DNA of 64,000 nucleotides from positions 467,875 through 531,874 of the forward strand of contig NZ_QUGI01000001.1 in the NCBI RefSeq assembly GCF_003478995.1, written 5' to 3'. The translations under genes were made by a program, and so were the position numbers. Position 1 is the first letter of the stretch. Each line of letters starts with the position of its first letter. The notes beneath the pieces are model-generated. The model saw nothing but the letters and a program-made list of their open reading frames with translations. It ran no database searches and was not told where the DNA came from. The DNA comes from Pseudoflavonifractor sp. AF19-9AC (GTDB lineage: Bacteria > Bacillota > Clostridia > Oscillospirales > Oscillospiraceae). Shown here in pieces: positions 11,375 to 33,004 of this stretch.

Positions 11375-11451
11375 GCGGCTGTAGCTCAGTTGGATAGAGT
11401 GTTTGGCTACGAACCAAAAGGTCGGGGGTTCGAATCCCTTCAGCCGTACCA
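11375..11451 (+). tRNA. tRNA-Arg (anticodon ACG)
   Basis: Complete cloverleaf. The 7-bp acceptor stem (GCGGCTG with CAGCCGT, one G-U), D-arm GCTC/GAGT, anticodon stem TTTGG/CCAAA with loop CTACGAA, and T-arm with TTCGAAT are all present. The discriminator A and CCA are encoded. The ACG anticodon (A34 modified to inosine) decodes CGU/CGC/CGA. An accessory island starts just downstream, so the 3' end is a candidate integration site. Confidence 0.97.
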
Positions 11452-12534: not shown

Positions 12535-12906
12535 ATGTTGAAGATCACTGTCACCGGAAATCTGACCAATGATGTGGAGCTGAAGATGAACGAAACCACG
12601 GGCAAGCCCTATGCCATCCTGCGCATCGCCTCGGACCGCCGCTATCGGGATCAGGAGGGCAACCGGCTTACCGACTTCATCTCTATCAAGGTGCGCGGCC
12701 CCCTGGCCGAGTTCTGCGCCGCCTACGCCTGGAAGGGCTGCAAGCTGGCCGCCACCGGCGATTTCGAGACCATCACTTTTTCTGACGATCCCACCCGCCA
12801 GCTGGGCTTCCTGATCAAGGCTACGGAGGTGGAGCTCCTCTCCCCCCGTCGGGCAGAGGAGGCGACCGCTGCCGAGCAGAACCAGGGCGAGTGTGAGGCC
12901 GCCTGA
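12535..12906 (+). CDS. ssb: Single-stranded DNA-binding protein (element-encoded)
   Basis: 123 aa OB-fold protein. It starts LKITVTGNLTNDVELK and continues with a conserved aromatic/basic stretch around RIASDRRYRDQEGNRLTDFISIKV, typical of SSB strand 1 to strand 3. The C-terminal tail is short and acidic-poor (EQNQGECEAA), lacking the DDDIPF-type tip of chromosomal SSB. It would protect transferred single strands during conjugation. The stop overlaps the next ATG (TGATG), giving coupling to the ParB-like gene. AAAGGAGAA precedes the start. Confidence 0.88.
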   Translation: MLKITVTGNLTNDVELKMNETTGKPYAILRIASDRRYRDQEGNRLTDFISIKVRGPLAEFCAAYAWKGCKLAATGDFETITFSDDPTRQLGFLIKATEVELLSPRRAEEATAAEQNQGECEAA

Positions 12907-16335: not shown

Positions 16336-16500
16336 ATGAGAAAAGGCCCCGCTTCAGCGGGGCCGAGCCAACGCCGCCAGGGGCGGCGTTGGGCAAGCAT
16401 CGCGCAAATGTACATTTTGCGCACTTGCAGGGGAAACCCCTGACCCCAATGCCGCCTGCGGGCGGAAGGTTTGCGGCAGAGCCGCAGAAAGGAGGCGCAC
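16336..16500 (+). other. Probable oriT region with nested inverted repeats
   Basis: Immediately upstream of mobC are several short hairpins: GGCCCCGC/GCGGGGCC, AACGCCGCC/GGCGGCGTT, GCGCAAA..TTTTGCGC, GGGGAAACCCC and TTTGCGGC/GCCGCAGA. Clustered inverted repeats directly before mobC-relaxase genes are the usual place and appearance of an origin of transfer. The nic site cannot be assigned by eye. The stretch 16168-16335 shows no gene or convincing signal. Confidence 0.55.
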
Positions 16501-16818
16501 TTGGGACTCCCCAAAGAAAAACACCATCTGCATATCGAACTGACGGCGGAGCAGTATCAGCAGCTCTGCCAGCAGGCCAAACTCTGCGGGCTGTGTAAAC
16601 GGGCTTATATCGTTCGGCTCATCGACGGTACGCCGATTCGGGCCAGACCCTCCCAAGAGATTAAGGACCTCCGCACGGAGATCCATCACATCGGCAACAA
16701 CATCAACCAGATCGCCCGCAGCGTCAATGCCGGTATCGCCACAGCAGAGGATGCCCAACATGGGCTGTTTCTGCTGGATCAGGTATATGAGCTCATGTAT
16801 CAGGTGGCAAAAAAGTAA
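16501..16818 (+). CDS. mobC: MobC-type mobilization accessory protein
   Basis: 105 aa from a TTG start at 16501, chosen because AAAGGAGG lies 5 nt upstream and the residues before it have no MobC similarity. It shows the MobC pattern: an N-terminal strand-helix-helix DNA-binding part (HHLHIELTAEQYQQLCQQAKLCG) followed by the conserved RTEIHHIGNNINQIARSVN segment (about 60-78). It binds oriT and helps the relaxase form the relaxosome. Its stop overlaps the relaxase ATG, so they are coupled. Confidence 0.88.
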   Translation: MGLPKEKHHLHIELTAEQYQQLCQQAKLCGLCKRAYIVRLIDGTPIRARPSQEIKDLRTEIHHIGNNINQIARSVNAGIATAEDAQHGLFLLDQVYELMYQVAKK

Positions 16819-18214
16819 TGGCTATCACAAAGATTCTCCCAGGTAATTCAAGAATTGATTTGGCAATCCAGTATATTCTAAATGGCGATAAAACTGCGGA
16901 ACGTGTCCTCACGGCACACATGAACTGTGACCCAGGGCGAGAATACCGCCAGATGATGGATACCAAACGGGAGATTGGAAAGCTGGGTGGTCGCCAGTGC
17001 TATCATATCATCCAGTCTTTTCGTCCTGGTGAGATCACGCCAGAGTTGGCTCTGGAGATTCCAAAAGAATTTGCAAGGGAACACCTCTCAGGTTATGAGG
17101 CTGTAATTGGTGTTCACGTGGATAAGAAGCATATTCACGCCCATACTGTTTTCAATTCTGTAAATCAGGATACTGGGGAAAAATATCATAGCACCCTACA
17201 AAGCTATTATCAGCAGATTCGTGTCATCTCAGACCGGCTGTGCCGGGAGCACGGCCTCTCCGTGATCCTCTCTGGCGAGACCTCCAAATCCATGAGCTAC
17301 GTGGAGTGGCTGCGTCAATCCAAGGGTCAACCCACCTTCCGCTCCATGCTGGAGGCGGATCTCCGGGAGTCCATTGAGGACGCCAATGACCTGGGACACT
17401 TCTTCCTGCTCATGGAGCACAAGGGCTACGAGATCCGCCACGGAAACCGCCTGGGGTTTCGCCTGCGGGGGCAGGAACGGTTCCAGTATCCAGGCAAAAA
17501 AATGCAGCCTTCACAGAGGACGGTATCCGCGCTGCCATCCTTGGCAATTTGGAGGAAATCGAGACGGGTCAACGGGCCGCTTTTGCTGACAGGCCTATGT
17601 TTCGTCCCTACCGCAGACACCCCAAATACACGGGCTTTTTGGCCCTGTACGTTCATTATCTCTACCTGCTGGGAAAAATCGAACAGCGACAGTATCCCCC
17701 CAGGATGACGCCGCACCTGCGGCAGGAAGTCATGAAGTTTGAGCAGTACCGGACACAGTTTGCTTTCCTGCGAGAGAACAACATTTCGACCACTGACGAA
17801 ATGACCGCCTATCAAAGCCGCACAGAGGAAACGCTGGCCAATCTGATGAAGCAGCGCACTATCCTCAATGTGCGCAAAAAGAAGCGGCAGGCGCTGTACA
17901 ACGCCCTGGCGGATGTGGAGGCCCTGGCACCGGCCAAGGTATGCTATGAGAAGGGGCTGTCCGGCATGGAGGAAGAGTTTGCCCGCTACATGCAAGCCGT
18001 GCGCCTATTGGAACAGCGCGGCGTCCCCTCTGAGCATCTGACGCAAGAAAAAACGGAGGTGTATAACCAGCTTGCCGATCTGAACCGGCAGATCCGCGCA
18101 GAACGCAAAAAGCTGGCCTTGTGCCGGGAAATCCAGACGGCAAGTAAGCAGATGGAAGAAGATATCCGCAAAACTGAAACAAGAGGAAAAGTCCAATGGT
18201 ATGAAGTTAGGTAA
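16818..18214 (+). CDS. MobA-type relaxase, interrupted by a -1 frameshift
   Basis: Relaxase/mobilization nuclease of about 465 aa if the frame is restored. The first frame (16818 to about 17501) has the Tyr-bearing motif AIQYILNGDKT (about residue 19) and the metal motif GVHVDKKHIHAHTVFN (three His, about 99-110). At an A7 tract (17496-17502) the frame shifts by -1, and homology continues as NAAFTEDGIRAAI into the frame ending at 18214 (GKVQWYEVR). That second part is a helical, charged tail. Without the shift the protein would end at 17708 with 296 aa. This is either a one-base deletion, a sequencing error, or slippage. The N-terminal nicking domain is complete either way. Confidence 0.85.
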
Positions 18215-18522: not shown

Positions 18523-19137
18523 ATGGACAATGCTATATATGGGTATATACGTGTATCAACAAAAGAGCAAAATGAAGCGCGCCAGCTGACAGCGATGCAA
18601 CAATTTGGCGTACCCAATGAAAATATAATTGTTGAAAAACAATCCGGAAAGGATTTCCGACGGCCACATTATCAAAGGTTACTCAAACAACTCCACTGTA
18701 ATGATGTTCTGGTGGTGAAGAGCATCGACCGGCTTGGACGCAACTACAAAGAAATCCTGGAGCAATGGCAAATCTTGACCAAAGAGAAGGGCGTAGACAT
18801 TGTGGTATTGGACATGCCGCTGTTGGATACACGACTGGGGAGGGATCTGACCGGACAACTGATCGCCGATATCGTTCTTCAACTACTTAGCTACGTAGCG
18901 GAGACAGAGCGGGAAAACATCCGCCAACGCCAGGCCGAAGGGATTATGGCTGCGAAGAAGCGTGGTGTACACTTGGGACGTAAACAAATGACTATGCCTG
19001 CGGAGTTTTATGATCTAGCCATTGCCTGGAGGAAGGGAAACATTTCTTCCCGCTCAGCAGCTGATCAGCTCGGTATTTCCTACCAGACATTTTTACGGCG
19101 CGCCAAGGAAACTGCGGATTGCGTTGATCCACAATAA
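18523..19137 (+). CDS. Serine recombinase, resolvase/invertase family
   Basis: 204 aa small serine recombinase. The nucleophile is in IYGYIRVSTKEQNE (Ser about residue 11). The conserved KSIDRLGRNYKEI (Arg cluster, about 65-78) and the E-helix AETERENIRQRQAEGI (about 126-141) are present. The C-terminus is a Hin-like helix-turn-helix (RSAADQLGISYQTFLRRAK). GGAGG precedes the ATG. It could resolve element dimers or invert a segment. Because it lacks the N-terminal MerR-like helix-turn-helix of IS607 TnpA, it is not the transposase partner of the TnpB-like gene downstream. Confidence 0.92.
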   Translation: MDNAIYGYIRVSTKEQNEARQLTAMQQFGVPNENIIVEKQSGKDFRRPHYQRLLKQLHCNDVLVVKSIDRLGRNYKEILEQWQILTKEKGVDIVVLDMPLLDTRLGRDLTGQLIADIVLQLLSYVAETERENIRQRQAEGIMAAKKRGVHLGRKQMTMPAEFYDLAIAWRKGNISSRSAADQLGISYQTFLRRAKETADCVDPQ

Positions 19138-19189: not shown

Positions 19190-19293
19190 ATCATTGAGTG
19201 TGGAAACCACCAGCGCTATTGGTGGTTATGACTCTGTGTAGGCTGTCGGGAAACCCATATTATTGTAAAAAAGACAGGATAATTGTGACAAAA

Positions 19294-19460
19294 GGTGTAC
19301 TTTTTGGATTGCCAATCTCGTTTTTGTTCCTTGAGTTATTCACTAGTTTTATCGGCTATTTTCTCGAAAACTTAAGACCTTTCCCAGAAAAATTTCATTA
19401 GAGATAGGTCTGTTACTAAAGGTACACCTTTTGGAACACACCTCGTTTTTCCTAATTGAG
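19294..19460. repeat. Pair of imperfect direct repeats upstream of the TnpB-like gene
   Basis: Copy 1 (19294-19335) and copy 2 (19421-19460) share the order GGT..AC..TTTTGGA, CTCGTTTTT, CCT and TTGAG, about 127 bp apart. They lie in the 347-bp AT-rich gap before the TnpB-like start. They could be operators, remnants of an insertion-sequence end, or target sites of the cassette's own guide RNA. Confidence 0.4.
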
Positions 19461-19484: not shown

Positions 19485-20669
19485 ATGAAAATGAATGACA
19501 ATCGCAGACCTTCTGCCCCCAAACGGACAACCCAGTACAACACCATCAAAATCCGCCTGTATCCCAATCAGGAGCAGGAAGAGTTATTTCAGAGGACTTT
19601 TGGCTGCTGTCGGTATATCTGGAACCGGATGCTGGCCGATCACGAACGCTTTTATTACGAAACAGACGCTCACTTTATTCCCACCCCGGCCAAGTACAAA
19701 ACAGAAGCGCCGTTTCTCAAGGAAGTGGATCATCAGGCGCTGACACAGGAGTACAACAAGCTCTCTCAGGCATTTCGTAACTTTTTCCGAAACCCTGCAT
19801 CATTCGGCTATCCGAAGTTCAAACGGAAAAAGGACGACCGGGACAGCTTTTCTGCCTGCAACCAGGTGATGGGCAACAGTGCCACCATTTATATCACCCA
19901 GGATGCCGTGCGCATGACCAAGGCTGGGCTGGTTCGGGCAAAATTCCCACGGCGACCCCGGAGCGGCTGGAAACTTACTCGCATTACCGTGGAGCGTACC
20001 AAGACCGGCAAATATTACGGTTATCTGCTTTTTGCCTGTCCGGTCCACGCACCGGAGCCGGTGAAACCCACAGCGGATACCACCATCGGCCTGAAATACT
20101 CCCTCACCCATTTCTATGTAAGGGATGACGGGATTACCGCCGACCCGCCCCGCTGGCTGAGACAATCTCAGGACAAGGTATCCTCCATCCAGGAAAAGCT
20201 GAACCGGATGCAGCCCGGCTCCAGAAACTATCGGGAGATGGTGCAGAAATACCGTCTGCTTCACGAGCACATCGCCAACCAAAGACGCGACTTCCTGCAC
20301 AAGGAATCCCGGCGGATAGCCAACGACTGGGACGCCGTGTGCATTCGGGACGATTCTCTTAAGGCGATCTCCGAGGAACTGGGCGGTAGCGACATCCACG
20401 ACACCGGCTTTGGAATGTTCCGCGAGATGCTGCGTTACAAGCTGGACCGGCAGGGCAAGCAGCTTCTGGAGGTAGGGCGCTTCGACCCCACCACCAAGGT
20501 CTGCTCCGTGTGCGGGGCCATCAATGAAACCCTTTCCCCCAAGGCCCGCCACTGGGTTTGTCCCGTGTGCGGCGCGGAGCACAAACGAGGGAAAAACGCC
20601 GCCGTCAATATCAAAGCCCATGGGCTGGCGTGTTACCAGAATAAACAGGTTGCGGAGGCAGTTTCATAA
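19485..20669 (+). CDS. Nuclease-dead TnpB homologue (TldR-like RNA-guided repressor)
   Basis: 394 aa with the complete TnpB layout: an N-terminal helical/beta region (KIRLYPNQEQEELFQRTFG; YPKFKRKKDDRDSF; RITVERTKTGKYYGYLLF), a RuvC core, and a zinc ribbon CSVCG (340-344) / CPVCG (359-363). All three RuvC acidic positions are changed. RuvC-I has IGLKYSLTHF where active enzymes have G-I-D-x-G (D to K204). RuvC-II has CIRDDSLK where E is expected (R288). RuvC-III has HKRGKNAAVNI where HDRDxNAA is expected (G369). The gene is otherwise full length, so this is selective loss, not decay. No TnpA lies beside it. The protein likely binds a guide RNA and DNA without cutting. A guide-like RNA, a csrA-like gene and flagellin follow. 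Confidence 0.9.
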   Translation: MKMNDNRRPSAPKRTTQYNTIKIRLYPNQEQEELFQRTFGCCRYIWNRMLADHERFYYETDAHFIPTPAKYKTEAPFLKEVDHQALTQEYNKLSQAFRNFFRNPASFGYPKFKRKKDDRDSFSACNQVMGNSATIYITQDAVRMTKAGLVRAKFPRRPRSGWKLTRITVERTKTGKYYGYLLFACPVHAPEPVKPTADTTIGLKYSLTHFYVRDDGITADPPRWLRQSQDKVSSIQEKLNRMQPGSRNYREMVQKYRLLHEHIANQRRDFLHKESRRIANDWDAVCIRDDSLKAISEELGGSDIHDTGFGMFREMLRYKLDRQGKQLLEVGRFDPTTKVCSVCGAINETLSPKARHWVCPVCGAEHKRGKNAAVNIKAHGLACYQNKQVAEAVS

Positions 20670-20885
20670 CCTTCCTGCAAAAAGTGATGTTGCCGGCCGG
20701 AACACCGGAGAAGGCCCATGCTTCCCGTTGGGGAGCGTTGAGCGAAGCGGCGGACAGTACGCTGCCGTTTCCCTCAGCGTTCTCCAATCCGCGGGAGATC
20801 GTTGGGAAACGAGAAGATGCCTCCCCTCTGGGGCCGCATCCGAAGCCCGGCAGGGCGTTCCAAACATTATGACGATGATCATCCA
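20670..20885 (+). ncRNA. Candidate guide RNA (omegaRNA-like) of the TnpB-like protein
   Basis: Directly after the TnpB-like stop, where omegaRNAs lie. A 13-bp wobble-rich stem pairs 20730-20742 with 20773-20785, with an internal 6-bp stem GCGGCG/CGCTGC. Next comes GATGC..CCCC-TCT-GGGG..GCATC (20816-20840) and a terminal GCCC-GGCA-GGGC hairpin (20845-20856) followed by GTTC. This GAAGCCC...GGGCGTTC ending resembles the scaffold end before the guide in IS200/IS605 omegaRNAs. The guide would then begin near 20861 and contain ATTATGACGATGATC. The exact 5' end may lie inside the upstream gene. Structure is seen by eye; the guide role is inferred. Confidence 0.6.
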
Positions 20886-20897
20886 AGATGATCGTAC

Positions 20898-20936
20898 CAG
20901 CGCAAAGGAGTGCGCTGTCTCATCAGACACAGGAGG
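20898..20936 (+). promoter_or_regulatory. CsrA-type binding hairpin plus GGA Shine-Dalgarno in the csrA-like leader
   Basis: CAGCGCA-AAGGAG-TGCGCTG (20898-20917) is a perfect 7-bp stem with GGA in a six-base loop, the classic CsrA site. The ribosome site AGGAGG (20931-20936) supplies a second GGA. This layout implies translational autoregulation of the csrA-like gene. Confidence 0.65.
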
Positions 20937-20945
20937 TCTTTTTGT

Positions 20946-21359
20946 ATGCTCAGCCTTTCTCTGCTTCCGGACGAATATCTGTCTATCAATAACGGTCAAA
21001 TCATTGTACATCTGATCCGTGTGGCAGGTGGCCGCGCCCACCTGCGGATAGAGGCCGACCGCAGCGTTCCCATTGTGCGGGGCGCTCTGCTGGAGCGGGA
21101 GGGCGCAGCCCGACCGGAGTGCCTGACACCGCCGCCCCGGAGAAATCCGGGCCACCGCCGGGATCACCTTTATCTCTGGAACGATGACCGGGAGCGGGCG
21201 GTGCGAGCCATCCAGCAGAGTATCGACCGGCTGGAGCAAACGGGAGAAACGGCGGAGGCCGACATTCTGCGGACTCAACTGAATCGCCTTATCCCCACCT
21301 TCTGGGAGGAAGAAAAGCTTCCCCGTCGCTTGCGGGAGCAGACAGCGGATTCTGTATGA
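20946..21359 (+). CDS. csrA: CsrA-like RNA-binding regulator with C-terminal extension
   Basis: 137 aa from the ATG at 20946 (AGGAGG 9 nt upstream). Residues 1-52 align with CsrA: MLSLSLLPDEYLSI matches MLILTRRVGETLMI, and the beta5 segment VPIVRGALLER keeps the RNA-contacting Arg (CsrA R44). CsrA is normally 60-75 aa. Here about 80 extra residues follow: a Pro/Arg linker (TPPPRRNPGHRRDH) and a helical, likely coiled-coil tail (ERAVRAIQQSIDRLEQTGE). CsrA proteins bind GGA hairpins and block translation, and in Gram-positives they repress flagellin. The gene lies 194 nt upstream of a flagellin whose leader carries such sites. The identification is by pattern, not by search. Confidence 0.75.
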   Translation: MLSLSLLPDEYLSINNGQIIVHLIRVAGGRAHLRIEADRSVPIVRGALLEREGAARPECLTPPPRRNPGHRRDHLYLWNDDRERAVRAIQQSIDRLEQTGETAEADILRTQLNRLIPTFWEEEKLPRRLREQTADSV

Positions 21360-21482
21360 CCCCGGCATGGGGCTGAATGTGGTTTCACTCGGTCGACGGG
21401 CCGGTTGAAATATAGGAAGCGTGTGGAATGGTACAGACCGCCAAAGGCCACGGTGTCTGTGCCGGACCGCCAAAACAAGAAC

Positions 21483-21543
21483 CTGCACAAAAGGAATCTG
21501 TGCAGCGACCAGTAAATACCCACATCATTTCATATTGAAAGGA
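21483..21543 (+). promoter_or_regulatory. Two CsrA-type GGA sites in the flagellin leader
   Basis: CTGCACA-AAAGGAATC-TGTGCAG (21483-21505) is a perfect 7-bp stem with GGA in the loop. The ribosome site AAAGGAAG (21538-21545) holds a second GGA 48 nt further on. Bacillus subtilis hag has the same two-site plan (one hairpin site, one over the Shine-Dalgarno). No sigma-28 consensus is evident nearer to the gene. Confidence 0.65.
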
Positions 21544-21553
21544 AGCAATTTGA

Positions 21554-23158
21554 ATGAGAATCCAAAATAATATCATGGCTATGAACGCCTACCGCAACTA
21601 CACCAACAATACCTCTGCTCTGTCTAAGAACCTGGAGAAGCTGTCCTCTGGCTACAAGATAAACCGTGCCGGTGACGACGCAGCCGGTCTGGCAATCTCC
21701 GAGAAGATGCGTGCCCAGATCACCGGTCTGGAGGGTGCCCAGAAGAATGCCAAGGACGGCATTTCCCTGGTGCAGACCGCTGAGGGTGCTCTGACCGAAG
21801 TCCATGACATGCTCAACCGTATGTACTCCCTGGCTGAGCAGTCCGCCAACGGTACCTACGAGAACGAGACCGACCGTGCCCAGCTGCAGAAGGAAGTCAA
21901 GAACCTGAAGGACGAGATCAACCGCATCGCCGACAGCTCCAACTTCAACGGCATCAAGCTGCTTAACGGCGATCTGGCTGGTCCCATGGTAGAGCAGACG
22001 GTTGGTACTGCCCCCACCGGCGCGGCCGCACCGACTATCACCGCTGCCACCGGCGGCCTGGAGATGACCGCTACTGATGGTGACGGTGCCTCTACTGCGG
22101 CTAAAATTGAGTTTGATGTGGCCGGTATGTCCATCAAGGCTCCCACGGATGGCTCCACCGGTTCCAAGGTCAAGTTTACCATCGGCGGCCAGGAAGTGGA
22201 GATTGATGTTGCCGGCGATATGGACGACACCGCCATTGCGAATGCGCTGAATACCAAGGAGATTACTCTCGGCAGCAAGAAATTTACTGCGTCTGTTTCC
22301 GGCACCACCGTTACCTTTACCGCGGAAGATAATACTTCGCTCACTACCGCTGTAACCGACCTCAACGGCACGAACGCTTCTGCCGCGGGCGTGGCTGGCA
22401 CTGCTGCAGACGCTACCGGCACTGCCTCCACTGCTACCATCGACTTCAGCAACTATACCGGTGCCAACCTGATCGGCGGCAGCATGACCATCGGCAACAC
22501 CACCTATTCCTTTGTGGAAAAGGCCGAAGACGCTGCTGCAGGCACAACTGCAATTGAAATTGCCAAGGACGCCACTGCTGAGGAGATTGCCCAGGCGATT
22601 GTCGATGCCACCGCTGACAATACAGCTGCCACCGGTGCGCTGGATGCGAGCGGGACCAAGGTTGTGCCGACAGAGGTGGCCGGTGGCGGCGGGACCTTCA
22701 GCGGTGAGAAGATCGCTGTTTCCTTTGAGGGTGCTGGCGGTCTGATGCTGCAGATCGGTGACACCAGTGACAGCTATAACCAGCTGGCTGTGCGCATCAG
22801 CGACTGTCATACCGACCAGATGGGCATTGGCGAGGGCAGTACCGACACCATTGCCGACATCGACATCGGCACTCAGGCAGGTGCCAAGGCTGCTTTGAAG
22901 ACCATCGAGAACGCCATCAACTATGTCTCCGACGTTCGTGGTACTCTGGGCGCTACCCAGAACCGTCTGGACCATACCATCAACAACCTGTCCGTGATGC
23001 AAGAGAACATCCAGGACGCTGAGTCCACCATCCGCGACACCGATGTGGCCGAGGAAATGATGTCCTACACCAAGAACAACATCCTGATCCAGTCTGCCCA
23101 GGCCATGCTGGCCCAGGCCAACCAGGTGCCCCAGGGCGTACTTCAGCTGCTGCAGTAA
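21554..23158 (+). CDS. fliC: Flagellin
   Basis: 534 aa. The N-terminal D0/D1 domain (1-140: MRIQNNIMAMNAYRNY, LSSGYKINRAGDDAAGLAISEKMR, NFNGIKLLNG) and the C-terminal D1/D0 domain (about 440-534: NRLDHTINNL, ESTIRDTDVAEEM, QAMLAQANQVPQGVLQLL) are complete. A variable, Ala/Thr-rich central domain (about 150-435) would be surface exposed on the filament. All assembly regions look functional. No other flagellar gene is in the window, so this is a lone flagellin on an accessory island, linked to the TnpB-like and csrA-like genes. It is likely exported by the host's flagellar apparatus, with codon use like a highly expressed gene. Confidence 0.97.
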   Translation: MRIQNNIMAMNAYRNYTNNTSALSKNLEKLSSGYKINRAGDDAAGLAISEKMRAQITGLEGAQKNAKDGISLVQTAEGALTEVHDMLNRMYSLAEQSANGTYENETDRAQLQKEVKNLKDEINRIADSSNFNGIKLLNGDLAGPMVEQTVGTAPTGAAAPTITAATGGLEMTATDGDGASTAAKIEFDVAGMSIKAPTDGSTGSKVKFTIGGQEVEIDVAGDMDDTAIANALNTKEITLGSKKFTASVSGTTVTFTAEDNTSLTTAVTDLNGTNASAAGVAGTAADATGTASTATIDFSNYTGANLIGGSMTIGNTTYSFVEKAEDAAAGTTAIEIAKDATAEEIAQAIVDATADNTAATGALDASGTKVVPTEVAGGGGTFSGEKIAVSFEGAGGLMLQIGDTSDSYNQLAVRISDCHTDQMGIGEGSTDTIADIDIGTQAGAKAALKTIENAINYVSDVRGTLGATQNRLDHTINNLSVMQENIQDAESTIRDTDVAEEMMSYTKNNILIQSAQAMLAQANQVPQGVLQLLQ

Positions 23159-24272: not shown

Positions 24273-25817
24273 ATGGCTGAAGTACAAGTGATCCCACCCA
24301 AGGCAGCTAGACCAGACACCCTGCGGGTAGCAGCCTATTGCCGGGTCAGCTCCGACTCTGCGGACCAGCTCCATTCCTACGCCGCCCAGATCCGGGCCTA
24401 TACGCAGGCGATCAACGCCCACGATGGCTGGGATTTGGTGGACATCTACGCAGACGAGGGCCTGACCGGCACGCGGATGGATAAGCGTGAGGACTTCAAC
24501 CGCCTGATGGCAGACTGCCGGAAGGGCAAGATCGATAAGATCGTGGTCAAGTCCATCTCCCGATTTGCCCGGAACACCCGTGACTGCCTCGCCACCCTGC
24601 GGGAGCTTACCTCGCTGGGCGTGACCGTGAAATTTGAAAAAGAGAATATCGACACTGGAACGCTCACCTCAGAACTGATGGTGAGCGTTTCCGCTTCTCT
24701 GGCCCAGGAGGAATCCATCTCCATCTCCAAAAATCAACGTATGAGCTATCAGCGCCGCATGGAGCGTGGGGAATTTATCACCTGCAAAGCTCCTTTTGGC
24801 TATAAGATCGTCAACAGCAAGGAATTGGAGATCATCCCGGAAGAAGCCCATTATGTCAAGTGGATTTTTGATATGTACCTTAGCGGGGCCAGCATGGAAT
24901 GGATCGCAGAACAGATGACAAATACAGGACTTTTAACTTCGGATGGAGGACATCAATGGTATAGCTCCACCATCGCTTATATGCTGACGAATGAGAAATA
25001 TATAGGTGATTCCCTCTGCCAAAAGACATTCGCAAACGCATTTCCCTTTACCAAGCAAGTGAACCGTGGAGAACGGGATCAATATTATGTAGAGCATAGC
25101 CATCCAGCTATCATTTCAAAGGATATATTTGAAAAAGCCCAAGCGCTTCTACAGCGCAAGGGGCAGCGGATAGACCTGCAGCGGGAACGTACCCCGCTTT
25201 CAAAAAAGATGACCTGTGGGCTCTGTGGCAGTACATTAGTCCGGCGGATCTCAAAAGCTGGATATGTTACCTGGGTGTGCCGCAAGCATGACAGAAAGGC
25301 TGCCGACTGCCCCAACGGACGGATCAGCGAGGACAGCATCCATGCGGCATTCCTCCGGATGTATCGCAAGCTCCGCACCCATGACGGCATCGTGCTGGCA
25401 CCTGTGCTGAGGCAAATGGAGACTTTGTCAGATGCCCTGCATCGCGGCAACCCGGCCATGCTGGCGGTCAACACAGCCATCGCCACGGCATCCGAGCAGA
25501 GTTACCACCTCACAAAGCTGCACACGGCAGGTCTCCTGGACAAGGCTGCCTTATCCACAAAGCAGGCGGAACTCAACGCCAAGCTGACAGAACTGCGCCG
25601 GGAGAGGCGAAAGCTGCTTTGCAATGAGGATATTGATGAACAGGTGGATGCACTTCGCCTAACGATCAATACCATCCGAAATGGTCCAGAGACTCTGTCC
25701 AGCTTTAACGAAGCCCTGTTTACCAAGCTGGTGGAACTAATCGTTGTAGATACCAAGAGTACCATCCGCTTTCAACTATATGGCGGGTTTGAATTCCAAG
25801 AAACACTGGAGGCGTAG
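24273..25817 (+). CDS. Large serine recombinase 1
   Basis: 514 aa. The N-terminal resolvase domain has the nucleophile in AAYCRVSSDSADQ (Ser about 27) and the Arg-rich KSISRFARNTRD (about 94-105). A recombinase domain follows (about 170-260, FGYKIVNSKELEIIPEEA), then a zinc-ribbon domain (CGLCGSTLVRR ... CRKHDRKAADC, about 315-347), a coiled coil (about 405-460) and a C-terminal beta segment. The start ATG has AAGGAGG upstream. Such proteins carry out site-specific integration and excision. With the next two genes it forms a three-gene recombinase module common in Clostridia elements. Confidence 0.93.
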   Translation: MAEVQVIPPKAARPDTLRVAAYCRVSSDSADQLHSYAAQIRAYTQAINAHDGWDLVDIYADEGLTGTRMDKREDFNRLMADCRKGKIDKIVVKSISRFARNTRDCLATLRELTSLGVTVKFEKENIDTGTLTSELMVSVSASLAQEESISISKNQRMSYQRRMERGEFITCKAPFGYKIVNSKELEIIPEEAHYVKWIFDMYLSGASMEWIAEQMTNTGLLTSDGGHQWYSSTIAYMLTNEKYIGDSLCQKTFANAFPFTKQVNRGERDQYYVEHSHPAIISKDIFEKAQALLQRKGQRIDLQRERTPLSKKMTCGLCGSTLVRRISKAGYVTWVCRKHDRKAADCPNGRISEDSIHAAFLRMYRKLRTHDGIVLAPVLRQMETLSDALHRGNPAMLAVNTAIATASEQSYHLTKLHTAGLLDKAALSTKQAELNAKLTELRRERRKLLCNEDIDEQVDALRLTINTIRNGPETLSSFNEALFTKLVELIVVDTKSTIRFQLYGGFEFQETLEA

Positions 25818-25820
25818 GCA

Positions 25821-26597
25821 ATGGCAAATCGGAAAATATTGTATGGCTACCAGATCATACATGGCGATCTGGTCATCCAGGAGGAGGAACGCCTCACGGT
25901 TCAAAATGTATTTACCACGTATCTGGCCGGGTTATCTTATCAGGCACTGGCAGACCGGATGAATGCGGACAACATCCCGTTCTCTCAGGAATCGCCGCTG
26001 TGGAACAAGCACAAAATCAAGCGAATGCTGGAAAACTCTCGTTATGCCGGAGAAAATGGATACCCATCCATCATTGACCAAGATACCTTCCAGCAAGTGC
26101 AGAATAAGATCGCGGAAAAGGCTAGTGGGAAGCTTCCACGCCGGACGGAATCGGATGGCTTATGGCAAAAGCTGCGAAGCGGATGCTGTCAGACTCGCCT
26201 GCTCCGAACCGGAGGGCCAATCGGGCATACTGGAAACGTCCATCTGAAATGTTCTGCCTGCAGAAACGCATTTGTTGTCGGGAAGGAGGAACTGCTTGCG
26301 CAGACGGCACGGCAGCTTGCGGCACATGAAACGCCCGTATGTAAGCCATACGCGCCCTCTGCGGAGGCCGTTCGCCTGGCCAACGCCATTAACCGGGCGT
26401 TGGAACAGCCAGGAGACGGTAAGGAGGCTCTCTCCCACATCCTGCAAGGGGCAGCTGCCTGGTATGCCTGCTGTGATGATGGCGTGGATACGGCTGTAAG
26501 CCAAACGCAGCCCGACCAAATCGACTGGGAGCGCTTCGAACGAATGGTCTCCCATATCATAATCGGAACAGATAACGCAATCACCGTACACTTTTGA
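25821..26597 (+). CDS. Recombinase-domain protein lacking the catalytic domain
   Basis: 258 aa, beginning 3 nt after the previous stop. It starts straight in the recombinase domain (YGYQIIHGDLVIQEEERLTVQ, LAGLSYQALADRMNADNIPF, KIKRMLENSRYAGENGYP) and lacks the resolvase domain and its Ser. A single incomplete zinc-binding patch (CSACRNAF) and a C-terminal segment resembling the end of large serine recombinases (ERMVSHIIIGTDNAITVHF) follow. It probably acts as a DNA-binding helper or directionality factor for its flanking recombinases. This is inferred from domain content and operon position. Confidence 0.82.
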   Translation: MANRKILYGYQIIHGDLVIQEEERLTVQNVFTTYLAGLSYQALADRMNADNIPFSQESPLWNKHKIKRMLENSRYAGENGYPSIIDQDTFQQVQNKIAEKASGKLPRRTESDGLWQKLRSGCCQTRLLRTGGPIGHTGNVHLKCSACRNAFVVGKEELLAQTARQLAAHETPVCKPYAPSAEAVRLANAINRALEQPGDGKEALSHILQGAAAWYACCDDGVDTAVSQTQPDQIDWERFERMVSHIIIGTDNAITVHF

Positions 26598-26620
26598 TTA
26601 GGAACAGAAAGGACAGCAAA

Positions 26621-28258
26621 ATGGAACAATCATCACTGGAACGCACCATCCACCATATTCCGGCATTACGGTCCAATGTAGCAGGCAACAAGACGAGACC
26701 CCATGGCAGGCAGCGGGTGGCGGCTTACTGCCGGGTCAGCACCGACAGCGAGGAGCAGATCAACAGCTACACCGCCCAGAAAGCCTACTACACCCAGAAA
26801 ATTGAGGAGTCCCCGGATTGGGAACTGGCCGGGATCTTCGCGGACGAGGGGATCACCGGAACCAGCATGAAAAAGCGAAAAGAGTTCAACCGGATGATCA
26901 CCGCCTGCAAGCGGGGCGGGATCGACCTCATCCTCACAAAGTCTCTCTCCCGGTTCGCCCGGAACACCGTAGACTGCCTGGAGACGGTGCGGATGCTGAA
27001 GGCCAGGGGGATCGGGGTCATCTTCGAAAAGGAAAATATCAATACGCTGACAGAGTCCAGCGAGTTCCTCATCACTCTGTTCAGCGGATTTGCCCAGGCC
27101 GAGAGTGAATCACTCAGCGTCAATATCCAGCTGGGCATCCGGATGGCAATGAAAGAAGGAAAGGTCAACTTCCACTACAGATCCATGCTGGGCTACCAAA
27201 GAGGAGCGGACGGTAAGCCGGAGATCGTACCGGAGGAGGCCAAGGTGGTGCGGCGAATCTACCGCCGGTACCTGGAGGGCTGTAGTGAGGGCCAGATCCA
27301 GAGAGAACTTACCCAGGAAGGGATCGCCACCGCAAAGGGTGTCAAGGCATGGTCCCATCAGATTGTGCATAACATCCTCACCAATGAAAAGTATGCGGGA
27401 GACGCCTTGCTGCAAAAGACCTTCACCACAGACTGCATCAGCAAGAAGGTCAAGAAGAATACCGGCGAGTTGCCGCAGTATTACATCAAGGACAACCACC
27501 CTGCTATCATCCCGCGGGACATCTACCAGCGGGTGCAGGAGGAGATGGCACGGCGGACCAGCAAGCGAAAGATTCTGCAGAAAAGCGGAAAAACAGAACA
27601 GGGCAAGTATTCCGCCAAATATGCGCTCAGTGAGCGGCTGGTCTGTGGGGAGTGTGGTTCCCTCTATAAGCGGTGTACCTGGGCCAGGAACGGCGTCAAA
27701 CGGATCGTCTGGCGGTGCGTCTCCCGGTTGGAATTCGGGAAAAAATACTGCCATAACTCGCCTTCCATGGCGGAGGACAAGCTGCATACCGCAATTCTCA
27801 CGGTGCTTAACCGGGTAGTCGAAGCAAGCGATGGCCTACAGGATGAACTGGCAGAGACGCTCCGAATGGTATGTACCCCGGAAGGGGACGGTAACAACCT
27901 GTTGGAATTGGAGCATGAACTGGAAGCCCTGACCGCACGACAGAACGCCCTGTTGGATCAGGCTCTGGCCAATATGGATGACCTAACGATAACGGAGCAA
28001 CTCAAGACCCTGCTGGAAGAAAAACAGCACCTGCAGGCGCGGATCGATGCGGCGAAGAAGGAGGCAGCCAACAGAATCAATGAGGACTCACGTATGACAG
28101 AGTACGCAACTTATCTGGAGGAACATCTCAATGGATTCCCTCACTATGACGACGAGGTCGTTCGCAAGATGATTGAACGTATCACTGTAGTCGATGCGGA
28201 AACAATACGGGTCAAGTTCCGATACGGCGATTTGGAGATTGAACAGACCGCGCGCTAG
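26621..28258 (+). CDS. Large serine recombinase 2
   Basis: 545 aa from the ATG at 26621 (AAAGGA 9 nt upstream), rather than a TTG 27 nt earlier that overlaps the previous stop. The catalytic domain has AAYCRVSTDSEEQ and KSLSRFARNTVD. The recombinase domain has LGYQRGADGKPEIVPEEA. The zinc ribbon is CGECGSLYKRC...WRCVSRLEFGKKYC, followed by a long coiled coil (about 415-500) and an end segment ERITVVDAETIRVKFRYG. It is the last gene of the recombinase trio, and its stop is followed by a hairpin terminator. Confidence 0.94.
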   Translation: MEQSSLERTIHHIPALRSNVAGNKTRPHGRQRVAAYCRVSTDSEEQINSYTAQKAYYTQKIEESPDWELAGIFADEGITGTSMKKRKEFNRMITACKRGGIDLILTKSLSRFARNTVDCLETVRMLKARGIGVIFEKENINTLTESSEFLITLFSGFAQAESESLSVNIQLGIRMAMKEGKVNFHYRSMLGYQRGADGKPEIVPEEAKVVRRIYRRYLEGCSEGQIQRELTQEGIATAKGVKAWSHQIVHNILTNEKYAGDALLQKTFTTDCISKKVKKNTGELPQYYIKDNHPAIIPRDIYQRVQEEMARRTSKRKILQKSGKTEQGKYSAKYALSERLVCGECGSLYKRCTWARNGVKRIVWRCVSRLEFGKKYCHNSPSMAEDKLHTAILTVLNRVVEASDGLQDELAETLRMVCTPEGDGNNLLELEHELEALTARQNALLDQALANMDDLTITEQLKTLLEEKQHLQARIDAAKKEAANRINEDSRMTEYATYLEEHLNGFPHYDDEVVRKMIERITVVDAETIRVKFRYGDLEIEQTAR

Positions 28259-28266
28259 AATAAAAG

Positions 28267-28409: not shown

Positions 28410-29717
28410 CTACCCAATTTCTAAAAGATCATTCCAGAGTGAGTCAATCTGAGCAGAATTAAATGTTATTTCAGCGCACAGCTTGTAAAGGCGGCGCTTG
28501 TAAACGGTCTCCTTGGCCGCGTATTGACCCTGGATAAAACAGGCGGTACCGAAGCAGAACTTCACGGAAGAGATGTCCTCAGAAGGGACTGTGGTCAGTA
28601 CACAGTCTTTTCGCAGTTTTCCCATCCTGCCCAATATGAAAGCGGCCTGATAATCATTCCGGTTATAGCGGACGATAACCTCCTTTGTATGCGCAGAAAA
28701 AATCGCGCGGAGGATGTCATCGTTGAGCAATTCTGCCAAAAACGGTGCCTGGATAAAGATGCGCGGTGCCTTAAAAGCGGCGCAATGGTACAGAATATCC
28801 TGAAGTTCTCCATCCAGCAGCGGGCGGTCGGCGTAATAGGCCGCTTCCAGTAAATCTGCCCAGTCACTCTGCACTCCACGGAGTTTGAACGCCGCAATCA
28901 AGTCGTGGGGCAGTTGTTCCTCCTCCGGGGAGGCGGCGCAAGGACGGTTGGGCGGAGAGAAGAGGTTCCAGGCGCCCAAGTGTCGGCAGTTGAGCTGTTC
29001 CGCCAGCACATCTGCATAGGCTTGGATTCCAGACTGGAAGTGAAAGGCCAGGGAGCGATCCGCCTGATTTAGATATACGAAGCAGAACTCGCGCTGATAG
29101 GACAGTGTGTGATAGGAGATATCAAGAATCCGATACAGCTCAGCGCTCTCAGCAGTACTCTGGAATACCACATTGGCCAGACGGCTCTCTCGGTAAATTA
29201 CTGCTAGCGTATCGAACTGACTGCGCAGGAATTCCATATTGAGTGGATACTTCTCCAGAAGGTATGCCTGCCCCCGCGGCGGCTCCCGGTAGGTGCCCAA
29301 GAGGGGCGTATCCGAGACCTCACCGGTGATCTGGTTTACCGATATGCGGCTGAGCTGGCTGCGCAAAGTCTTGACCTTCTTCTGGCTCTCCAGCACCTTT
29401 TTCCCCAAATCAGTCAGGACAATGTCGCCACAGGAAACAGCGGCGAGCTGCTCACTGTCCAGCTGTGATACGATTTGTAGCATAATACTTTCTGGCAGAC
29501 CAAACTGATCGGCAAGATCGGGGAGGGATTTGGCACCGATGCGGATGGCGGTGAGGACACATTCTTGAACAAAGGAGAGCACCTGGACACGCCGTTCCCA
29601 GACAGTCAAGCCGATTTCCTGGACAGGAATATAGACTGGAACCCGACAGATGAAATCATAGCCGGAAAGCTGCGGAGGAATGTATTTATCAACATTTTTT
29701 TGCCATTCAGATAGCAT
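28410..29717 (-). CDS. Partner of kinase-helicase protein, unknown function
   Basis: 435 aa. Residues about 47-110 (FVQECVLTAIRIGAKSLPDLADQFGLPESIMLQIVSQLDSEQLAAV ... LTDLGKKVLE, quoted in part) read as a winged helix. The C-terminal 120 residues have an alternating strand/helix pattern (IFIQAPFLAELL; EVIVRYNRNDY; SVKFCFGTACFIQG) that loosely recalls phospholipase-D-like nucleases, but the HxK histidine is absent, so I do not assign it. It overlaps the stop of the kinase-helicase gene by 11 nt, so the two are translationally coupled and probably work together. Confidence 0.7.
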   Translation of the reverse strand: MLSEWQKNVDKYIPPQLSGYDFICRVPVYIPVQEIGLTVWERRVQVLSFVQECVLTAIRIGAKSLPDLADQFGLPESIMLQIVSQLDSEQLAAVSCGDIVLTDLGKKVLESQKKVKTLRSQLSRISVNQITGEVSDTPLLGTYREPPRGQAYLLEKYPLNMEFLRSQFDTLAVIYRESRLANVVFQSTAESAELYRILDISYHTLSYQREFCFVYLNQADRSLAFHFQSGIQAYADVLAEQLNCRHLGAWNLFSPPNRPCAASPEEEQLPHDLIAAFKLRGVQSDWADLLEAAYYADRPLLDGELQDILYHCAAFKAPRIFIQAPFLAELLNDDILRAIFSAHTKEVIVRYNRNDYQAAFILGRMGKLRKDCVLTTVPSEDISSVKFCFGTACFIQGQYAAKETVYKRRLYKLCAEITFNSAQIDSLWNDLLEIG

Positions 29718-32700
29718 TTGTAAACTCCTTTATATCGATTTCCTGACAAAACTCGGGATGCTCCTGCATATAGCTGATCACATAGGGAAAGCGGTTGCCG
29801 GGGATACGGGGATTGCGGAGAAACTTTCCGTCACCGACAATGATCAAGGCCCGTTTCGCGCGGGAGAAGGCAACATTCAGCCGTGCTTCCTCTTTCAAGA
29901 ATCCGATACGCCGCTGATTGCTGCTTCGGACGGTGGAGTAGATGATGATGTCACGCTGACTGCCCTGGAATGCATCCACGGTGTTGATATCGACTTCAAT
30001 GTGGCTCAATGGGATTTGCTTGAGGCGGTTCCGGATTAGCTCCAGCTGCGCCCGGTATGGCGTGATGATGCCGATGGAATACTTCTCCCCTTGAGCGGAG
30101 ATTTCTTGGTTCAGCCTTTGCAAGCAGCTTTGGATCACAGTGACTTCCAGATGGTTGATGTATCCGCGTTGGTGCCCGACGGATTGTTCAAAGCGGACGG
30201 AACCGGCATTGGAGGTGGTTAGCCAGGTGATGGCGCAGTTATTGAGCATGGGAAGGTTCGTAGTTCGCTCAGATGCCTTAACGCCATTTTGCACTTTGCT
30301 ATCGTAAAAAAGAAAGCTGATGAGATCGCCGATCGCCGGGTGCATCCGGTACTGGGTGGAAAGCGTCTCTTTACAGCTGTCAGGCAGGATGTCAAACAGT
30401 TTCCCGAACCCGGTGTTTTGAAGCTCATCGATCTGGGAAGACTGGAAGCTGGCTTTGAGGGCATTCCGATCAAAGACCGGTGGCAGTTGCTTGTGGTCGC
30501 CCACTAGAATTGCCTTTCGTGCCCGAACCAAGGGAACCATGATTTCCGGCAGAGTTGCCTTTGCTGCTTCGTCTACAATCACATAGTCGAAGGTCGAGTC
30601 ACGGACGCGGGGATCCGAAATGACGCCAATGCAAGTACCTACGATAATGGAAGCGTTTTTGATATAAAACTCTCCCAGCTCATTGCTCTCACTGATGCGT
30701 CGGATCCATTGTTCGGAAATCAGGCAGCTCTGTACGTAAGGATTGGTGCGGCTTTTCCCGTAAGTGTTTTCAAAGTCTGTGGCAACCCGTTCCAGACGTA
30801 TGCGCTCTGTTTCTTCCAGATTTGCAAGTTTCAGCTCTTCCAACACTTGTGCGTATTTACAGAATGGCTCCATGGGGATGTGCTGTTCCAATAAACGTTG
30901 GGCCAGCCACGCTTTACAGTTCTCAACGCTTTCCTTCACCCATAGGGTCTGGCAGTGGTCCAATCCGAACCGTTCATTGATCTTGGGGTCAATATTTTCC
31001 TCGTGACCAATACGGATGGTCGTATGTTCCAGATAGGCTGCAAGGTCTTCCAGCAGTTTATCCACAGCGGCATGAGATTGGGACACAATCAAAATTTTCT
31101 GATCCAGTGCAGGATTCCGTTGGTTTTCCCCCAGAATCTGCCGGATTACTTCCACCAGGACATTGGTTTTGCCGGTGCCTGGAGGCCCCTGGATCAAAGC
31201 AATATCCTCCGCCTCCAGCGCTTTCCGGACCGCGCGCTTCTGGGTAAAATCCAGCTGTTCATTATAGAAGCAGGGCATAACCTTGAGCTGGAAATACCCG
31301 GGCTGCTCGGCACCCACAAAAATGCTCTTCAGATTTCCGCCGTTGGCGGTCTCAGATCGGCGGAATTCCTCCAGTGCTGCCTCCTGGCGGCGGTACTGCT
31401 GGATCTCTTTGCGGTAATCCAAACAGATAGAACCATTGTTCGGCATCCGGGGCTTCCTGGGTGCGGCCTTGATAGCCATCACAGCGCCGTCCTCCCGGTA
31501 TTCCCAGAAGGTGCCGACCTCTGCCAGAATTGGCTTCTTTTTGAAACGCCCACGCTGCTCAAAAATAAACAGGGTATCCTGGCTGAACGTCTCATCCGGC
31601 ACGCTGTCCGGATCCAGCCGGAACAGGAACATCCCGTCTTCGTAGCGGACACTTGTGTAGTACAACCGGACAGTATTCTTAGACGCGTCTGCGATCATAG
31701 CTTGGATGAATTCCCGCCAGATACCGTACTGTGTGTCGTATTCCCGGTCGATATTTTTCTGCGAGTGGATATCCGCTTGGAAATCAGCAATCCGGTTGCT
31801 TAGGATCTGGCTGCAATTGTTGGGAAGAGGGGTGTTTGCGATTCTGTGCGAAAACAGAAATTGGAAATGCCCAGGAACCTCCATGGAAAAGCGCTTGTGC
31901 TGCTCCCGCTTGAAGGCATCCAGCCGGCGGAAAGAGACCACCTGGAAAAAATCGTCCGACAAAACGCATTCCATTGAGATGCTGATGCCGTCAAAGCAAT
32001 AGATGGAGGTCTGACCCTCGGCACGAAGACGGATCAAGCCGCCCGCAAACTGGGCGGGAAGGAAGCTGTCCAGCAACTCTAAATAGGGCATATCCCGCCG
32101 TACCAGGTTACGTCTTTTCAGATCGTCGAGCGCATTGGTGGGGACGGCGAAGAAGTACCGCTCGTCGCTACCGCAATACCGCTGGTAGAGCGGAGCCAGG
32201 GCCAGTTCGCAGTCATCAATGTTTTCATATCGGTCCGCCGGGGCAGGGGCACACATCTTCAAAAGGACTTCCTTTAACTTTACATCGATGCCGCCAGCGG
32301 ATTGGATAGCCGTGGGCATTTCAGCAGCCGTCACTGGGACTTCACCGGTGAAAAGAAAATAAATGACAGCACCCAGCGAATAGATATCGCTGCGCTCTGT
32401 TGCATTTTCACTGTGGACGGTTACTTCCGGCGCGGAATAATTCTGGGTAGCGAACTGATATGTGGTTCCGTCCTGGAACATCCCGCGGATTTTTGCGATT
32501 CCGAAATCAATCAGTTTCAGCTCAAACGAGTCGGTAATGAGGATGTTGGAGGGATTGATATCCCGGTGAATCACGGAGTTTCGATGGGCGTGTTGGATGG
32601 CGTTGGTCAGCTGCTTTACCAGGTTGTACCGGGTGGAGGCATTCGGGATCACGTCTAGCATCTGGGACAGGGGACGTCCCTGAACATACTCCATGGAAAT

Positions 32701-32946
32701 GATGCCTTCACTTCGGCCATCCGGAGCGGCCTGGATATCTGAGCGGAAGATACGGACAATATTCTCGCAGGCCTTCAGCCGCGTCAGGGCCTGTGTTTCC
32801 TTCTGAAAAATGGCTCGGTAGATAGGGGCTTCCAGATTCTGGACTCGCTTTACCACAAAGCGAAACCCTGCTTCATTTTCTACCAGCTCTACAATTGTTC
32901 CAGAGTCCCTCTGCTTGCTCAGCGTCTGAATCACTTTTTCCTCCAT
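29707..32946 (-). CDS. Ser/Thr protein kinase fused to SF1 (Upf1/DNA2-like) helicase
   Basis: 1079 aa from the ATG at 32946 (AAAGGAAC upstream). The N-terminal eukaryotic-type kinase (about 1-260) has K33, E50, HRD 127-129, N134, DFG 147-149 and a SAPE motif near 171, so it looks active. A middle region (about 260-560) has no recognised motif. The C-terminal helicase has Walker A GPPGTGKT (587-594), DEAA (792-795), GDHKQLPP (816-823), TQYRMHP, TVDAFQGSQRD and NVAFSRAKRA: a complete SF1B motif set. Kinase-helicase fusions with a coupled partner on a mobile island suggest anti-phage defence. I do not match it to a named system. Confidence 0.9.
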   Translation of the reverse strand: MEEKVIQTLSKQRDSGTIVELVENEAGFRFVVKRVQNLEAPIYRAIFQKETQALTRLKACENIVRIFRSDIQAAPDGRSEGIISMEYVQGRPLSQMLDVIPNASTRYNLVKQLTNAIQHAHRNSVIHRDINPSNILITDSFELKLIDFGIAKIRGMFQDGTTYQFATQNYSAPEVTVHSENATERSDIYSLGAVIYFLFTGEVPVTAAEMPTAIQSAGGIDVKLKEVLLKMCAPAPADRYENIDDCELALAPLYQRYCGSDERYFFAVPTNALDDLKRRNLVRRDMPYLELLDSFLPAQFAGGLIRLRAEGQTSIYCFDGISISMECVLSDDFFQVVSFRRLDAFKREQHKRFSMEVPGHFQFLFSHRIANTPLPNNCSQILSNRIADFQADIHSQKNIDREYDTQYGIWREFIQAMIADASKNTVRLYYTSVRYEDGMFLFRLDPDSVPDETFSQDTLFIFEQRGRFKKKPILAEVGTFWEYREDGAVMAIKAAPRKPRMPNNGSICLDYRKEIQQYRRQEAALEEFRRSETANGGNLKSIFVGAEQPGYFQLKVMPCFYNEQLDFTQKRAVRKALEAEDIALIQGPPGTGKTNVLVEVIRQILGENQRNPALDQKILIVSQSHAAVDKLLEDLAAYLEHTTIRIGHEENIDPKINERFGLDHCQTLWVKESVENCKAWLAQRLLEQHIPMEPFCKYAQVLEELKLANLEETERIRLERVATDFENTYGKSRTNPYVQSCLISEQWIRRISESNELGEFYIKNASIIVGTCIGVISDPRVRDSTFDYVIVDEAAKATLPEIMVPLVRARKAILVGDHKQLPPVFDRNALKASFQSSQIDELQNTGFGKLFDILPDSCKETLSTQYRMHPAIGDLISFLFYDSKVQNGVKASERTTNLPMLNNCAITWLTTSNAGSVRFEQSVGHQRGYINHLEVTVIQSCLQRLNQEISAQGEKYSIGIITPYRAQLELIRNRLKQIPLSHIEVDINTVDAFQGSQRDIIIYSTVRSSNQRRIGFLKEEARLNVAFSRAKRALIIVGDGKFLRNPRIPGNRFPYVISYMQEHPEFCQEIDIKEFTNAI

Positions 32947-33004
32947 GAAATGTTCCTTTCTTCCCTTAATAGATGGCCTAAATGCATGGTAACAGGATAT
33001 TAAA

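What the first reader, a model, noticed from the sequence alone, without database searches (positions are those of the whole stretch)
19485..23158. A mobile tldR-guide RNA-csrA-flagellin cassette: predicted RNA-guided flagellar switch
Four parts lie in one direction: a dead TnpB, a guide-like RNA, a CsrA-like regulator and a complete flagellin. They sit inside an element with MobC, relaxase and recombinases and with no other flagellar genes. The model has two layers. The guide RNA-protein complex silences the resident flagellin promoter, and the element's CsrA tunes translation of its own flagellin. The filament antigen would change on acquisition, affecting phage receptor use and immune recognition.
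Basis: partly seen in the sequence, partly recalled or inferred. Interest (0 to 1): 0.95.

Follow-up and report, generated by a model that had tools for sequence, protein, structure and literature searches.

The report
RNA-guided flagellin switch in mobile element
Inside the worn-down remains of a conjugative DNA element, this bacterium carries a TnpB-like protein without its cutting residues, a guide-RNA region, a CsrA-like gene and a spare flagellin gene, which together are predicted to shut off the resident flagellin and replace it when an upstream promoter segment likely flips; this kind of locus is already published, so the news is mainly its address and the silent codon differences that would spare its own flagellin.

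Summary
A RuvC-dead TnpB (19485-20669), a structured guide-RNA region (guide 20863-20878), a CsrA-like gene (20946-21359) and an intact flagellin (21554-23158) lie head to tail in a conjugative-element backbone. Walker et al. 2026 (PMC13418256) already describe csrA-TldR-fliC loci with hin and an inverton, so the core is known. Corrections: the guide block matches the START OF THE CODING REGION of resident flagellins in relatives, not a promoter; and the element looks decayed (relaxase frame broken, cassette where a relative carries transfer genes). Added here: 17 of 18 guide-resident pairs match across the 6-nt seed against 3 of 26 guides with their own flagellin, mostly through synonymous Asn6/Ile7 codons; position 10 mismatches the target in all 18 pairs. 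The window's own genome is not held, so its real target is unchecked. Best model: a Salmonella fljBA-like phase switch with TldR plus CsrA as repressors, parked in a former ICE; none of 31 related loci showed that ICE gene set in the DNA held.

The parts
11375..11451 (+). tRNA-Arg (acg) at the left edge of the element
   Evidence: ARAGORN and Rfam; sequence just after it recurs at 85-94% identity in other genomes
12535..12906 (+). SSB-like gene of the element
   Evidence: PF00436 2.2e-13
16471..16818 (+). MobC/NikA-like mobilisation gene
   Evidence: PF21983 6.4e-13, PF05713 3.6e-8
16818..18214 (+). relaxase, broken: the N-terminal part is in one frame (16818-17708) and the C-terminal part continues in another (17549-18214)
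   Evidence: PF03432 8.9e-37 on the first part; one open frame in L178, L188, L190 and L191
18523..19137 (+). Hin-like serine recombinase, predicted invertase
   Evidence: PF00239 4.2e-32; hin-like gene upstream of tldR in many relatives
19284..19438 (.). predicted inverton bounded by 21-nt inverted repeats 19284-19304 and 19418-19438
   Evidence: 86% complementary arms, 113 nt between
19349..19375 (-). FliA-type promoter TTAAGTTT-N11-GCCGATAA pointing away from tldR (predicted OFF state)
   Evidence: motif recalled
19485..20669 (+). tldR, nuclease-dead TnpB
20670..20862 (+). gRNA scaffold (approximate ends), with a long hairpin at about 20730-20786
20863..20878 (+). predicted guide AACATTATGACGATGA
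20946..21359 (+). csrA-like gene (137 aa, long C-terminal part)
   Evidence: PF02599 residues 1-51, 4.7e-9
21483..21505 (+). GGA-loop hairpin in the fliC leader, candidate CsrA site
21554..23158 (+). complete flagellin gene
21569..21584 (+). site in the cassette's own flagellin that corresponds to the guide; mismatched at positions 3, 6, 10 and 12
24273..25817 (+). large serine recombinase 1
25821..26597 (+). serine recombinase 2 (Recombinase domain only)
26594..28258 (+). large serine recombinase 3

Best explanation
The cassette is predicted to be a phase-variable flagellin replacement switch: Hin would flip a FliA-type promoter, and in the ON state the operon would make a guide-loaded dead TnpB and a CsrA that likely silence the resident flagellin while its own, differently coded flagellin is made instead. 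Steps: (1) Hin inverts 19284-19438 (inferred from inverted repeats and from both promoter orientations among relatives; Walker et al. report inversions at a Flavonifractor plautii locus). (2) From the ON orientation FliA would transcribe tldR-gRNA-csrA-fliC; in this assembly the promoter points away, so the state is predicted OFF. (3) TldR with its gRNA would bind codons 6-11 of resident flagellin genes and block transcription (sequence match shown here in relatives; binding shown by Walker et al. for other csrA-TldRs; not shown for this one). (4) CsrA would bind GGA-loop hairpins in flagellin leaders and repress translation; which leader dominates is open. (5) The cassette flagellin would escape because its codons differ from the guide in the seed. 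(6) The cassette sits where a related ICE carries its transfer genes, so it was probably acquired by, or recombined into, an ICE that has since decayed.
For: Catalytic Asp replaced (Lys, Asn or His) and Glu replaced by Arg in 32 of 32 cassette TldRs. Conserved gRNA fold in 26 loci. In 16 genomes the pattern AAYATTATGNCNATG occurs 43 times: 24 at flagellin starts, 15 at cassette guides, 4 unassigned; the reversed control pattern occurs once. Seed match 17 of 18 guide-resident pairs against 3 of 26 guide-own pairs. FliA-type promoter between inverted repeats in 21 of 32 loci, 14 pointing away (window included) and 7 towards tldR (my reading). GGA-loop hairpins in 16 of 30 cassette and 18 of 28 other leaders against about 2.4 and 2.0 in shuffles. 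ICE backbone with the cassette in the transfer slot. Published binding data for related loci (PMC13418256).
Against: The window's own genome is not held, so no resident flagellin or target could be examined for this locus. 3 of 26 own flagellins match the guide seed (L006, L125, L126), and one resident (G285:C134) does not. Position 12 also mismatches in 7 of 18 resident pairs. Own flagellins read AAC/ATC close to their general codon habit (282 of 298 Asn, 134 of 165 Ile), so residents are the odd ones at this site. 11 of 32 loci gave no clear inverton. The CsrA-like protein lacks the Arg6/Arg7 that E. coli CsrA uses (E. coli residues recalled). No expression or inversion data for this locus.
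Confidence: 0.62

Rival explanations
1. The block AAYATTATGACGATGA is conserved scaffold, not guide, and its likeness to flagellin is incidental.
For: It is conserved in the 26 main-clade loci with few changes, and position 10 never matches the target.
Against: 39 of 43 genome-wide pattern hits fall at a guide or a flagellin start; guide position 12 equals the resident base in 3 of 4 guides that depart from G there (L120, L125, L126; not L018); five divergent gRNAs carry the same flagellin region in another register; the paper places targets inside fliC.
Confidence: 0.06
2. There is no phase switch: tldR-csrA-fliC is expressed from another promoter once acquired, as in the Enterobacter flagellin-remodelling prophage, and hin acts elsewhere or is idle.
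For: Walker et al. say TldR-FliCP expression appears constitutive in the Enterobacter lysogen (passage); 11 of 32 loci gave no clear inverton.
Against: Promoter lies between inverted repeats in 21 of 32 loci, in both orientations; the paper reports inversions at related loci.
Confidence: 0.15
3. The cassette is an inert relic in a dead ICE: it neither moves nor is expressed.
For: Relaxase frame broken, T4SS block absent, promoter points away.
Against: tldR, csrA, fliC, hin and the three recombinases are open; the gRNA keeps its fold and a guide that avoids its own flagellin.
Confidence: 0.17
4. The codon differences between cassette and resident flagellins are codon habit or ancestry, not a way to spare the cassette's own flagellin.
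For: Own flagellins follow their general AAC/ATC habit at the site; the genomes are related, so the 26 and 18 comparisons are not independent.
Against: Residents with a TldR in the genome read AAT ATT in 16 of 16, against AATATT in 4 of 16 Asn-Ile sites among 25 other flagellins; position 6 is mismatched in 23 of 26 own and 0 of 18 resident pairs.
Confidence: 0.25

Closest known systems
csrA-associated TldR loci (Walker et al. 2026, PMC13418256; abstract, section 11, part 1 of the legends and passages seen)
   Same: Dead TnpB, csrA, fliC, gRNA whose target lies in a fliC ORF, hin upstream, FliA-promoter inverton, long gRNA hairpin
   Different: Paper calls them chromosomally encoded; here the locus sits in an ICE backbone. 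Synonymous self-sparing and the fixed position-10 mismatch were not found in its main text by word search; supplements not read
Enterobacter flagellin-remodelling prophage TldR-FliCP (same paper)
   Same: TldR represses the host flagellin and a second flagellin replaces it
   Different: Prophage carrier, guide against the fliC promoter region, no csrA or inverton described in what was read
Salmonella Hin / fljBA phase variation (recalled; cited by the paper)
   Same: Hin, invertible promoter, second flagellin with a co-transcribed repressor of the first
   Different: Repressor there is FljA (recalled); here TldR-gRNA and CsrA
   Same: Left end, HipA-like, MobC, relaxase and three serine recombinases at 77-93% nucleotide identity
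   Different: G238 has VirD4 and TraG-type ATPase genes where the window has the flagellin cassette; its relaxase frame is open

Membership tests
csrA-associated TldR (Walker et al. 2026) | TnpB-like protein with RuvC active-site mutations | tested here: met
csrA-associated TldR (Walker et al. 2026) | csrA and fliC within 3 kb of tldR | tested here: met
csrA-associated TldR (Walker et al. 2026) | gRNA downstream of tldR with conserved fold and long hairpin | tested here: met
   prediction on 26 sequences; RNase III cutting not testable
csrA-associated TldR (Walker et al. 2026) | guide matches a flagellin gene of the same genome | tested here: inconclusive
   window genome not held; met in 15 relatives' cassettes, seed-perfect in 17 of 18 pairs
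csrA-associated TldR (Walker et al. 2026) | hin and FliA-promoter inverton upstream (most loci) | tested here: met
csrA-associated TldR (Walker et al. 2026) | RNA-guided DNA binding and repression | not testable with these tools
   needs ChIP-seq or a reporter
Integrative and conjugative element | integrase/recombinase genes | tested here: met
Integrative and conjugative element | intact relaxase | tested here: not met
   frame broken
Integrative and conjugative element | T4SS between relaxase and recombinases as in G238 | tested here: not met
Flagellin-remodelling prophage | carried by a prophage | tested here: inconclusive
   no phage family among the window ORFs scanned with Pfam (subset); no TldR relative in viral contigs; PHROGs not searched
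Salmonella-type Hin/fljBA switch (works like, not member) | invertible promoter before a second flagellin and its repressor | tested here: met
   architecture only; FljA not sought

The most novel reading that the evidence does not exclude
Conjugative elements carry phase-variable flagellin replacement kits in which one dead-TnpB guide silences the common start of resident flagellin genes, the kit's own flagellin is immune through synonymous codons in the 6-nt seed, and a fixed mismatch at guide position 10 is a built-in safeguard, for example against cleavage of the chromosome should an active TnpB pick up the same guide RNA.
Probability: 0.22. Interest if true: 0.78.

Novelty: new member of a known kind. 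Interest (0 to 1): 0.56.

Why it matters
It puts RNA-guided repression, DNA inversion and CsrA control into one flagellin switch found here in an ICE backbone, which would give a transfer route for filament change among gut commensals. The family comparison gives a rule that can be tested directly: codons at Asn6 and Ile7 decide which flagellin is silenced, and position 10 is always mismatched. If it holds, targets can be predicted in any genome with such a cassette.

Tried and rejected
Promoter-targeting guide: rejected, because the match lies in codons 6-11. Carriage by a virus: the viral-contig scan gave no relative. Right end of the element: no second copy of the tRNA 3' end of 12 nt or more in the window; homology to G238 stops at 28264, so the right end is not set and it is open whether the kinase-helicase gene 29707-33033 belongs to the element. 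Empty chromosomal site: searches from both flanks were not followed to one. Target-adjacent motif as the basis of self-sparing: 18 of 18 resident pairs have CAC or CAT before the site and most cassette flagellins do too, so not for the family; the window's own flagellin differs there (CAAAAT). The divergent clade was first compared in the wrong register and redone.

Rows left out: three resident rows were dropped (L013, a second copy of a cassette flagellin; G123:C27, a 1068-aa divergent protein, paired with two cassettes); all three mismatch the seed, and with them the match is 17 of 21. L002 and L010 were left out because their contig lengths and coordinates equal those of L111 and L123; L011 (fragment) and L012 (32% identity) were not used as cassettes; L129 was left out of the guide comparison because its contig ends before the guide. 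Resident flagellins without a held N-terminus, and weak flagellin-like hits, were not compared. One search left out L013, L002, L010, L214 and two duplicate pieces, and its shuffles keep single-letter content only; some of its hairpins overlap the ribosome-binding site.
Full report
What is there. The window holds, on the + strand, a Hin-like serine recombinase (18523-19137), a 155-bp segment bounded by inverted repeats (19284-19304 and 19418-19438), a TnpB-like gene (19485-20669), a structured guide-RNA region, a csrA-like gene (20946-21359) and an intact flagellin (21554-23158).

The TnpB is dead. In an alignment of 32 cassette proteins (window included) with active-looking TnpBs, the first RuvC Asp is Lys in 26, Asn in 5 and His in 1, and the Glu is Arg in 32 of 32; L035-L039 keep both. 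The last Asp is Gly in the window and is kept only in L111, L128 and L129 of the 32.

The family. A TldR search of GTDB contigs gave 12 loci, in MAGs or strains named Flavonifractor, Intestinimonas, Butyricicoccus, Oscillibacter, Flintibacter and others; L012 is only 32% identical. In a family sample 26 of 400 genomes match at E up to 1e-60, the weakest (36-39% identity) probably ordinary TnpBs. Hin, tldR, csrA and fliC recur together, not every part in every locus. Five close TldRs (L001, L003, L111, L112, L113; 78-79% identity) leave only 339-407 bp to fliC, no room for csrA there; L003 has a CsrA-like match upstream of tldR instead. The closest CsrA-like proteins (57-61%) are in G031 and G072, where no TldR was found at that cut-off. 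The module looks mosaic.

Guide and target. Aligned gRNA regions share a predicted fold (26 loci, 34 of 54 pairs varying on both sides), including a long hairpin like the one Walker et al. report as cut by RNase III; L001 lacks it. At the 3' end is a 16-nt block, AATATTATGACGATGA in most loci and AACATTATGACGATGA in the window, that matches codons 6-11 of flagellin genes. In 16 whole genomes the pattern AAYATTATGNCNATG occurs 43 times: 24 at flagellin starts, 15 at cassette guides, 4 not assigned (G251:C70, G285:C69, G397:C1:542, G397:C3); the reversed control occurs once. Across 26 main-clade cassettes the seed (positions 1-6) is matched by 3 of 26 own flagellins and by 17 of 18 resident pairs (16 genes, 15 cassettes; 17 of 21 if three dropped rows are kept). 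The difference lies at position 6 (mismatched in 23 of 26 own, 0 of 18 resident) and position 3 (18 of 26, 1 of 18). Both are third codon positions, of Ile7 and Asn6, so the changes are mostly synonymous. Residents read AAT ATT in 16 of 16, although the same genes use AAC in 156 of 161 and ATC in 71 of 89 codons elsewhere; own flagellins read AAC in 19 of 26 and ATC or ATA in 23 of 26, near their general habit. So the resident site is the unusual one. Of 25 other flagellins (two of them in genomes with distant TnpB hits only), 16 encode Asn-Ile there and 4 of those read AATATT, 5 AACATT. AACATT is what the window's guide reads, but the window's resident flagellin is unknown. The genomes are related, so the Fisher value (2.7e-8) is only indicative. 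Five divergent TldRs carry guides for the same region shifted by 7 nt.

Position 10. In 26 guides this base is A (25) or T (1), while all 60 flagellins tabulated have G. I have no firm explanation. Walker et al. say that repression was retained with natural guide-target mismatches in the Enterobacter system, and that 6-nt guides suffice there (passages). A safeguard against active TnpBs is a guess.

Switch. By my reading, a FliA-type promoter lies between inverted repeats of 10 nt or more in 21 of 32 loci: 14 point away from tldR (the window among them) and 7 towards it. The other 11 had no such pair, a weak repeat or too little upstream DNA. The promoter motif is recalled, and matches outside repeats also occurred (L001, L003, L007, L116, L124).

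CsrA. The window's fliC leader holds CTGCACA-AAAGGAATC-TGTGCAG (21483-21505). GGA-loop hairpins with at least 6 Watson-Crick pairs occur in 16 of 30 cassette leaders and 18 of 28 other leaders, against about 2.4 and 2.0 in shuffles. Walker et al. found their CsrA on the leader of the TldR-targeted gene. So this layer may act on either or both.

Setting. Left of the cassette are a tRNA-Arg (11375-11451), SSB, a methylase piece, a gene with a weak HipA_C match, MobC/NikA and relaxase; right of it three serine recombinase genes. G238:C9 has the same backbone at 77-93% nucleotide identity, with VirD4 and a TraG-type ATPase between relaxase and recombinases; the window's homology breaks at 18191 and resumes at 23323, around the cassette. 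The relaxase frame is broken in the window and open in four relatives. This is a decayed ICE with the cassette in the transfer slot. In 31 other cassette loci no match to the window's relaxase, MobC or SSB was found in the DNA held, some of it under 10 kb; L126 has a large serine recombinase next to tldR.

Known and new. PMC13418256 (seen: abstract, section 11, part 1 of the legends section, passages) already describes this kind of locus. ICE carriage, codon-based self-sparing and the position-10 rule were not found in its main text by word search; its supplements were not read, and the library holds open-licence papers only (searches). The finding is a new member of a known kind with an unusual address.

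Noticed in passing
guides of 26 main-clade cassettes, window 20872: Guide position 10 never matches the flagellin target, although neighbouring positions do.
   Followed up: partly
L001 gRNA: This Flavonifractor MAG gRNA lacks the long hairpin (132 nt against 206 for the window stretch).
   Followed up: no
window 21390-21480 and leaders of L001, L006, L112, L124, L128, L171, L172: A shared leader segment before fliC (TTTCAYCCGG ... CCGGTTGRAATA) looks like a conserved RNA structure; no Rfam family reached its threshold in the window except the tRNA.
   Followed up: no
G031 and G072 (L161-L165): csrA-like plus flagellin loci with hin-like pieces but no TldR found; their CsrAs are the closest to the window's.
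   Followed up: no
L190:16837-17400 and L198:6073-6663: Hin-like matches (63-65%) on DNA that also carries, or adjoins, ICE genes like the window's, without a flagellin match on the pieces held.
   Followed up: no
window 29707-33033 (-): A 1108-aa protein joins a protein-kinase domain to a helicase (AAA_11/AAA_12); its role and whether it belongs to the element are unknown.
   Followed up: no
L115:7407-9521 and L119:1565-5953: Chromosomal cassettes lie near a glycosyltransferase, methyltransferase and chemotaxis-receptor genes, perhaps for flagellin modification; the window has none after fliC.
   Followed up: no
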